Shown piece by piece: positions 27,019-27,783 of a stretch of 64,000 bases of DNA (the first letter of the stretch is position 1; each line of letters starts with the position of its first letter). The DNA is from Cladopsammia gracilis (lineage: Eukaryota; Cnidaria; Anthozoa; Scleractinia; Dendrophylliidae), in the NCBI GenBank assembly GCA_022457155.1, contig JAJGOT010000052.1, positions 2,003,001-2,067,000 on the forward strand. The letters run 5' to 3'. A model generated the notes under the pieces. It was not told where the DNA came from and ran no database searches. It worked only from the letters and a program-made list of their open reading frames with translations. A program made the position numbers and the translations under genes.

Positions 27019-27783
27019 ATGCGGCTCTCTACTGTGCTTCTTCTTCTTTTCATCACCATAGTGTTGGTGGAGTTAACCGAGGCAAGAGGACGAGGGGGTG
27101 GAAGCCGGGGAGGCTCCAGAGGCTCAAAAAGTCGCTCGAGTTCGCGCTCACGATCAAGCTCAAAACCTAAAATCACCAAGTACACTCCGATCAAAGCGAC
27201 CACAGTTCGCTCCCCTGTTATCGTCAGTCAAACTAAACTGGGTTCGCGCTCGAACACGTTCAAGAGAGTTCTGTTTGGTTATATCGTGTATCGTTATGCA
27301 TTTAGCGACGCTCCAGTTTACCGGCACGGATATTCCATGTACGGCAGTTATGTGTCCATCCCAGAGAAACGAGCTGTCAGGCTAACCTATGAAGAGCAGA
27401 AGATGCTGAACGCTGAAGGAAACAAGTGTCTCCCGGACGATTCAGTTACTAAGACACTGCTGGATGGAATCGACGAATACTTGGTCGAATTGACGACTAC
27501 AGTCAAGTACAAGACTGGAGAACCGCAGGTATATTATAACAATACAGTTTCTCTGAAAGACATCAAAGAAGAGGATTTTGAAGTGACATGTCGTGCTCGG
27601 TACAATACAACGATAGTAAATGGAACATTTTGCACACAAGTTGAAAACAAAATCAAAGGCACAATGGTTACAATGTACGACACGAATCCCAACACAGCCA
27701 GCTCCCTTTATATCAACAAGCTGCTCACAAATGTGATTATACTGCTGACAGTTTACATTCATGCGTTTCAGTTTCTTTACTAG
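27019..27783 (+). CDS. Secreted/GPI-anchor-like RG/RS-rich glycoprotein with prion/Shadoo-like layout
   Basis: An intronless open frame of 254 codons. Residues 1-22 are a textbook signal peptide (MRLSTVLLLLFITIVLVELT). Residues 23-51 are basic and low-complexity: GRGGGSRGGSRGS, then SRSSSRSRSSSK. A tyrosine-rich segment spans 85-111 (GYIVYRYAF, YRHGYSMYGSY). Cysteines are 137, 191 and 205; N-glycosylation sequons are N174, N196 and N201. The C-terminus (235-254) is hydrophobic and ends at the membrane segment, as GPI signals do. The order signal, RG repeats, glycosylated core, GPI tail matches vertebrate prion-family proteins. I see no convincing residue alignment and do not claim homology. 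An upstream in-frame Met at 26896 would hide the signal peptide, so I chose 27019. A related invertebrate group is the CX-module proteins. Confidence 0.8.
   Translation: MRLSTVLLLLFITIVLVELTEARGRGGGSRGGSRGSKSRSSSRSRSSSKPKITKYTPIKATTVRSPVIVSQTKLGSRSNTFKRVLFGYIVYRYAFSDAPVYRHGYSMYGSYVSIPEKRAVRLTYEEQKMLNAEGNKCLPDDSVTKTLLDGIDEYLVELTTTVKYKTGEPQVYYNNTVSLKDIKEEDFEVTCRARYNTTIVNGTFCTQVENKIKGTMVTMYDTNPNTASSLYINKLLTNVIILLTVYIHAFQFLY

What the first reader, a model, noticed from the sequence alone, without database searches (positions are those of the whole stretch)
27019..27783. Prion/Shadoo-like architecture in an invertebrate intronless gene
Signal peptide, RG/RS low-complexity basic tract, tyrosine-rich segment, glycosylated core with three cysteines and a GPI-like tail occur in one single-exon protein. 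Vertebrate PRNP and SPRN also have the coding sequence in one exon with the same order. Prion-family genes are described as vertebrate (with ZIP-transporter ancestry), so convergence or an unrecognised relative would both be worth knowing.
Basis: partly seen in the sequence, partly recalled or inferred. Interest (0 to 1): 0.75.

Follow-up and report, generated by a model that had tools for sequence, protein, structure and literature searches.

The report
Coral surface protein family, not prion
A stony coral carries one copy of an undescribed protein family that looks lipid-anchored to the cell surface; its layout superficially recalls the prion protein, but its predicted core is an unrelated all-beta domain with no clear match among solved structures.

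Summary
The ORF at 27019-27783 is a real gene. Three searches fetched 155 relatives; the 14 with a source name are all stony corals, six genera. The prion reading fails where it matters. The third cysteine is kept in 4 of 142 family sequences, the window's included; C137 and C205 in 140 and 141. The central hydrophobic segment is too weak for a membrane span (0 of 147). The core is predicted all-beta (pLDDT 88, pTM 0.80), whereas PrP and ZIP share a helix-turn-helix. Pfam gives one Shadoo match, far below cut-off and confined to the RG tract. No solved structure matches the core clearly. Best reading: an undescribed, duplicated coral family of GPI-anchored surface glycoproteins; polyanion-binding adhesion is my inferred best guess. 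Oddest feature: a conserved segment (residues 49-78) that is largely predicted disordered. Paralogues in the window's own genome could not be searched.

The parts
27019..27783 (+). whole single-exon coding sequence, 254 aa, stop TAG at 27781-27783
   Evidence: relatives to E 5.7e-105
27019..27084 (+). signal-peptide-like N-terminus, residues 1-22 (cleavage site estimated by eye)
   Evidence: mean hydropathy 2.25 over residues 1-19; 124 of 142 family sequences over 200 aa reach 1.6 in a 15-residue window near the N-terminus
27085..27162 (+). basic Arg/Gly/Ser tract, residues 23-48; predicted disordered
   Evidence: net charge +9 over residues 23-50; pLDDT under 50 at 21-50; median 88% R/G/S/K in 140 family sequences measured, 14 of 140 under 70%, some of them ORFs with a longer N-terminus
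27163..27252 (+). conserved, largely disordered basic linker, residues 49-78
   Evidence: mean entropy 0.80 bits, second lowest of the 14 regions drawn; pLDDT under 50 at 61-78
27253..27309 (+). short hydrophobic helix, residues 79-97; not hydrophobic enough for a membrane span
   Evidence: helix 80-95 (pLDDT about 60); 0 of 147 family sequences reach mean hydropathy 1.6 over 19 residues
27310..27357 (+). Tyr-rich beta hairpin, residues 98-113, the most conserved stretch
   Evidence: mean entropy 0.73 bits; strands 104-107 and 110-113
27310..27690 (+). all-beta core, residues 98-224
   Evidence: core model (residues 96-226) pLDDT 88.1, pTM 0.80
27427..27429 (+). C137, near-invariant; inferred to pair with C205
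   Evidence: 140 of 142
27589..27591 (+). C191, the third cysteine, private to this and three other family sequences
   Evidence: 4 of 142
27604..27606 (+). N196, best-kept N-glycosylation sequon
   Evidence: 109 of 142; position checked
27631..27633 (+). C205, near-invariant
   Evidence: 141 of 142
27691..27780 (+). GPI-type attachment signal, residues 225-254
   Evidence: hydrophobic tail in 77 of 78 representatives, letters variable
27834..27839 (+). ATTAAA, candidate polyadenylation signal
   Evidence: motif search; role inferred

Best explanation
This is one copy of an undescribed, duplicated family of GPI-anchored cell-surface glycoproteins of stony corals. Shown by sequence and model: conservation, secretion-type start, basic arm, one near-invariant cysteine pair, an all-beta core, and a GPI-type tail. 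Inferred: the protein is exported, the two cysteines bond, the N-terminus is trimmed, and the tail is exchanged for a GPI anchor, so that the beta core sits close to the outer membrane leaflet with a flexible, strongly positive arm (net about +17 over residues 23-83) pointing outwards. Most likely mechanism (inferred): the arm and the conserved linker bind polyanions outside the cell (sulfated glycans, mucus, or acidic proteins of the skeletal matrix), making the family an adhesive surface coat. I hold 'real coral surface family, not prion kin' at about 0.9 and the polyanion-binding adhesion role at about 0.35; the confidence below is for the statement as a whole.
For: Relatives in six named stony-coral genera: 14 of 14 named proteins out of 155 fetched. 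C137/C205 in 140/141 of 142. Hydrophobic tail in 77 of 78. Basic tract kept in charge even where the RG letters are lost: the divergent P0141, P0142, P0144 and P0145 have an Arg/Thr-rich tract instead (sequences). All-beta core model, pLDDT 88.1, pTM 0.80. Several copies on what appears to be one contig: Stylophora P0010, P0038, P0077 and P0138 all list a contig of 316,768 bases (equal length taken as the same contig). Lineage-specific clusters in a tree of 55. Coral skeletal proteins include acidic ones with predicted GPI anchors that a basic arm could bind (PMC4043741, passages).
Against: No expression, localisation or binding data were found. The five identifiers searched are in no held paper, and the main text of one S. 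pistillata skeletal proteome paper contains no LOC111338 or SpisGene165 identifier (supplements could not be read). GPI and glycans are predictions. One of 78 tails falls short (P0117), and 18 of 142 N-termini miss the hydropathy mark. 141 of 155 relatives carry no species name, so the restriction to stony corals rests on 14 names.
Confidence: 0.4

Rival explanations
1. A family of surface receptors for microbes or algal symbionts: the beta core recognises a ligand through its variable loops, and gene duplication diversifies recognition.
For: Several copies per species and lineage-specific clusters; loops 131-153 and 166-175 vary more (1.72 and 1.96 bits) than strands (0.95-1.12). In corals, tandem duplicates make up almost a third of genes in two species, and extracellular sensing, cell adhesion and signalling families are amplified (PMC10236652, passages).
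Against: The loop variation is moderate, as in most domains (recalled). The most conserved stretches are the linker and the Tyr hairpin, which points to a shared partner rather than diversified ones (inference). No codon-level test could be run.
Confidence: 0.3
2. An unrecognised invertebrate relative of PrP, Shadoo or ZIP ectodomains.
For: Same order of signal, basic tract, sequon-bearing core with one cysteine pair, GPI-type tail; single coding exon as in almost all vertebrate prion genes (PMC3203146, passages). One weak Shadoo match in the RG tract of one of 41 members.
Against: All-beta core prediction against a helical PrP/ZIP domain; no Pfam match in the window protein and none above cut-off in the 40 of 41 members scanned one by one; no membrane-span-like hydrophobic domain and no CPALL(Y)-type motif.
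Confidence: 0.02
3. A basic component of the skeletal organic matrix, shed from calicoblastic cells rather than acting at the cell surface.
For: Named relatives are all stony corals; predicted GPI anchors occur among coral skeletal proteins (PMC4043741, passages; PMC7115838 predicts them for 10 of 60, passages).
Against: The five identifiers searched are in no held paper and none of the searched Stylophora identifiers is in the main text of PMC7115838. Acropora identifiers were not searched in PMC4043741, and supplementary tables could not be read, so this is weak evidence.
Confidence: 0.2
4. A chance or decayed ORF.
For: Only one copy found in the window, next to mobile-element remains.
Against: Full-length relatives at 52-71% identity in the alignment of 41 with near-invariant residues; intact reading frame from start to GPI-type tail.
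Confidence: 0.03

Closest known systems
Prion protein family: PrP, Doppel, Shadoo
   Same: Order of signal peptide, basic or repeat tract, core with sequons and (PrP, Doppel) a disulfide, GPI-type tail; coding sequence in one exon in almost all cases.
   Different: Core predicted all-beta instead of three helices with a short sheet; 65-73 residues between the two conserved cysteines (117 sequences measured; shorter in PrP, recalled); no membrane-span-like hydrophobic domain; Tyr-rich hairpin before the first cysteine; the only profile match is one relative's RG tract.
ZIP (LIV-1) ectodomain, cysteine-flanked core
   Same: An extracellular domain with a conserved cysteine pair close to the membrane attachment.
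   Different: No CPALL(Y)-type motif (0 of 156), no helix-turn-helix in the model, no transporter domain.
CX-module proteins (PF01705; accession recalled)
   Same: Low-complexity N-terminus and Tyr-rich stretch, as I recall them.
   Different: No Pfam match in the window protein even at E 10; two conserved cysteines instead of a cysteine-rich module (recalled).
Fibronectin III / Ig-like and MD-1-like beta sandwiches

Membership tests
Prion protein family (PrP/Doppel/Shadoo) | Sequence match to a prion or Shadoo profile | tested here: not met
   Window protein: 0 Pfam families at E<=10. Of 41 members one Shadoo match, E 0.45, 11.1 bits against a cut-off of 27, residues 24-55 of P0005, all in the RG tract. 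One search named 25 of 26 families; the 26th, EBNA2_Core, appears.
[quoted passage not shown] Doppel likewise, recalled) | tested here: not met
   Core model: eight strands of 3 or more residues and only two helices of 4 or more, each 4 long (56-59, 124-127), pLDDT 88.1; PrP described in PMC5874730 (passages). Predicted structure only.
Prion protein family (PrP/Doppel/Shadoo) | Match of the fold in a library search | tested here: inconclusive
   No prion chain in the 50 rows shown; absence from a list does not exclude.
Prion protein family (PrP/Doppel/Shadoo) | Conserved hydrophobic domain between basic tract and core (PrP, Shadoo; PMC4207050, passages) | tested here: inconclusive
   A short hydrophobic helix is at the right place, but its best 19-residue mean hydropathy is 1.25 (median 0.75) and 0 of 147 reach 1.6. 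The threshold is a membrane-span rule of thumb, and no prion sequence was measured beside it.
Prion protein family (PrP/Doppel/Shadoo) | GPI anchor, signal peptide, N-glycans | tested here: inconclusive
   Sequence signals fit; no dedicated predictor and no biochemistry.
Prion protein family (PrP/Doppel/Shadoo) | Coding sequence in one exon | tested here: met
   Uninterrupted ORF with both terminal signals, collinear with relatives.
ZIP LIV-1 ectodomain | CPALL(Y)-type motif in a cysteine-flanked core | tested here: not met
   0 of 156 sequences match C[PR][AS][LI][LI][YF]; 1 of 156 has CP[AS].
CX module (PF01705) | Match to the Pfam model | tested here: not met
   Window protein: 0 families at E<=10; not among the 26 families matched by 41 members at E<=1.
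Fibronectin III / Ig-like domain | Clear structural match over most of the domain | tested here: inconclusive

The most novel reading that the evidence does not exclude
A stony-coral-specific surface protein family built on an extracellular beta fold not yet among solved structures, with a strongly conserved but intrinsically disordered 30-residue segment that docks on one shared partner, for example an acidic skeletal protein or a sulfated glycan, and so couples coral tissue to its skeleton or mucus.
Probability: 0.2. Interest if true: 0.65.

Novelty: new member of a known kind. Interest (0 to 1): 0.35.

Why it matters
It removes a tempting invertebrate prion candidate and puts in its place a well-conserved coral gene family that matches no Pfam domain above cut-off in the members scanned and has no described function in the papers searched. 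Surface proteins peculiar to reef builders are candidates for skeleton attachment, mucus or symbiont contact, and this one comes with near-invariant residues that make mutational tests direct.

Tried and rejected
Prion/Shadoo/ZIP kinship: disfavoured by predicted fold, Pfam, hydrophobic segment and motif. No prion chain stood in the 50 rows shown; I count that as no evidence either way. CX module: no match. Other Pfam matches, all below their cut-offs: the best are New_glue in 3 of 41 members (E 0.00014, 22 bits against 31, residues 1-77 of P0045, signal and tract), RAP1 in one (E 0.0014, residues 34-155 of P0058) and LolA_like in one (E 0.0025, residues 166-222 of P0080). 40 of the 41 members were scanned one by one (P0120 was not, P0129 was scanned in addition). 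I read these matches as compositional or chance and did not pursue them. PDB sequence search: only chance matches (carbapenem synthase E 0.037; with the profile best E 1.9). Viral structure library: 0 at E<=0.001. More copies in the window: tblastn of the 121 proteins then held found only this locus at E<=1e-3.

What each count left out: A1 holds 41 of 121 proteins (representatives at 80% identity, four of 45 left out by hand); A2 holds the window core and 75 of 129 relatives; the tree 55 of 156; the site-entropy count 139 of 156 (14 shorter than 225 aa, plus P0010, P0143, P0154); the tail test 78 representatives of the 130 then held, all 78 measured; the tract composition 140 of 156; the Cys-spacing pattern, which allows 55-80 residues, matched 117 of 156. 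Family counts include the window's own protein. Hits beyond rank 120 (93 of 213 and 102 of 222) were not shown, and one search scored only the 7994 candidates sharing most words; one search listed 111 of 111. Own-genome paralogues and codon-level selection: not done, because the genome search did not answer in eight tries.

Papers: eight searches listed no paper whose title or abstract start describes this family; the library holds open-licence papers only and supplements could not be read. Passages alone were seen of PMC3203146, PMC2745754, PMC10236652, PMC7115838, PMC4043741, PMC5874730, PMC13044578 and PMC4207050; all other papers only as search listings.

Full report
What is there. The window holds an uninterrupted ORF of 254 codons at 27019-27783 on the plus strand. 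Residues 1-22 look like a signal peptide, 23-48 are an Arg/Gly/Ser tract without acid, 88-111 hold seven tyrosines, three sequons lie at N174, N196 and N201, three cysteines at 137, 191 and 205, and the last 30 residues fit a GPI attachment signal. An ATTAAA starts 51 bases after the last base of the stop.

Is it real. A protein search gave 213 proteins at E<=1, best 5.7e-105, 120 of them listed. A profile of 41 gave 222 at E<=10, 120 listed. A search with the core of an Acropora relative gave 111 at E<=10, all listed, every one at 3.6e-5 or better. Together 155 relatives were fetched. Fourteen carry a source name, and all fourteen are stony corals: Stylophora pistillata (4), Oculina patagonica (3), Montipora foliosa (3), M. 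capricornis, Pocillopora meandrina, Porites evermanni and Acropora cervicornis. These genera span the complex and robust lineages (recalled taxonomy). The other 141 have no name, so the restriction to stony corals is likely but not proven.

A duplicated family. In a tree of 55 of the 156 sequences the four Montipora proteins, a group of four around the Acropora protein, and a group of five around the named Stylophora and Pocillopora proteins each form a cluster with high support. The window protein groups with two shorter near relatives and with a group of four that contains the Porites protein (100/98). In the window only this copy was found. I could not count copies in the window's own genome, since genome search did not answer in eight tries.

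What the conserved parts say. Among 142 family sequences of 225 aa or more, the window's included, C137 and C205 are kept in 140 and 141; C191 in 4. So the family has one cysteine pair, with 65-73 residues between them in the 117 sequences that the pattern matched. N196 is a sequon in 109 of 142, N174 in 63. The tail is hydrophobic in 77 of 78 representatives while its letters vary (mean entropy 2.15 bits), as expected of a GPI signal. Of the 14 regions I drew, the lowest entropies are in the Tyr-rich hairpin (0.73 bits) and the linker 49-78 (0.80), lower than in the beta strands (0.95-1.12) and the loops at 131-153 and 166-175 (1.72, 1.96). Most of the linker is predicted disordered (pLDDT under 50 at 61-78). 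A stretch that is disordered alone and yet so conserved usually binds something (inference); this is the feature I find hardest to explain.

The prion reading. In its favour stand the order of parts and the single coding exon, which almost all vertebrate prion genes share (PMC3203146, passages). [quoted passage not shown] Against it stand the predicted fold, the weakness of that hydrophobic segment (0 of 147 reach 1.6 over 19 residues), the absent CPALL(Y)-type motif of ZIP (0 of 156), and Pfam. The single Shadoo match covers only the RG tract of one relative. Signal, low-complexity tract, glycosylated domain and GPI tail is a common plan for surface proteins (recalled), so the resemblance needs no shared descent. 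I find no support for kinship and only a loose convergence of layout.

How it may work. The anatomy suggests a cell-surface glycoprotein on a GPI anchor, a small disulfide-bonded beta domain, and a flexible arm with a net charge of about +17 over residues 23-83. A basic arm is kept even in the divergent P0141, P0142, P0144 and P0145, where it is Arg/Thr-rich rather than Arg/Gly. Outside the cell, such an arm could meet sulfated glycans, mucus and, at the skeleton side, acidic matrix proteins, some of which are themselves predicted GPI proteins (PMC4043741, passages). I therefore commit to an adhesive surface-coat role through polyanion binding, at about 0.35, with microbe or symbiont recognition (0.3) and a skeletal-matrix role (0.2) as the serious rivals. 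None of these is shown; I found no expression or localisation data for the family.

Novelty. Eight searches of the held library listed no paper that describes the family in its title or abstract start, and no Pfam model matches above its cut-off in the 40 of 41 members scanned one by one. Tandemly duplicated coral families, with the amplified families differing from genus to genus, are a known kind (PMC10236652, passages), so I rate this a new member of a known kind.

Noticed in passing
window 38996-42925, minus strand: Exons of an HSP90-family gene: HSP90 domain (E 9.9e-52) at 38996-39610 and HSP90-like ATPase domain (E 1.3e-9) at 42446-42925.
   Followed up: partly
window 28363-29280: 40-base inverted repeats, 93% complementary, 838 bases apart, about 580 bases after the gene's stop; looks like a short inverted-repeat element.
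   Followed up: no
window 26164-26481 and 8555-9034: Remains of mobile elements: hAT dimerisation region (E 0.0058, 16.8 bits against a cut-off of 21.4) just upstream of the gene, and a tyrosine-recombinase-like ORF with DUF3504 and phage-integrase matches.
   Followed up: partly
window 4894-5067, 32857-33102, 36080-36695, 58144-58319: Similar 88-base tandem unit at three places (one on the other strand, by eye) and a related 106-base unit at a fourth, a dispersed satellite.
   Followed up: no
window 27163-27252: Residues 49-78 of the protein are predicted largely disordered but are among its most conserved parts; no explanation beyond 'binds something'.
   Followed up: partly
window 50799-51461 and 60989-61918: Minisatellites of 90 bases x 7.4 and 82 bases x 11.3; across the first, two overlapping plus-strand frames stay open as Pro/Ser-rich ORFs.
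   Followed up: no
window 33571-33644, minus strand: A doubtful tRNA call without a clear anticodon, inside a 302-base tandem duplication.
   Followed up: no
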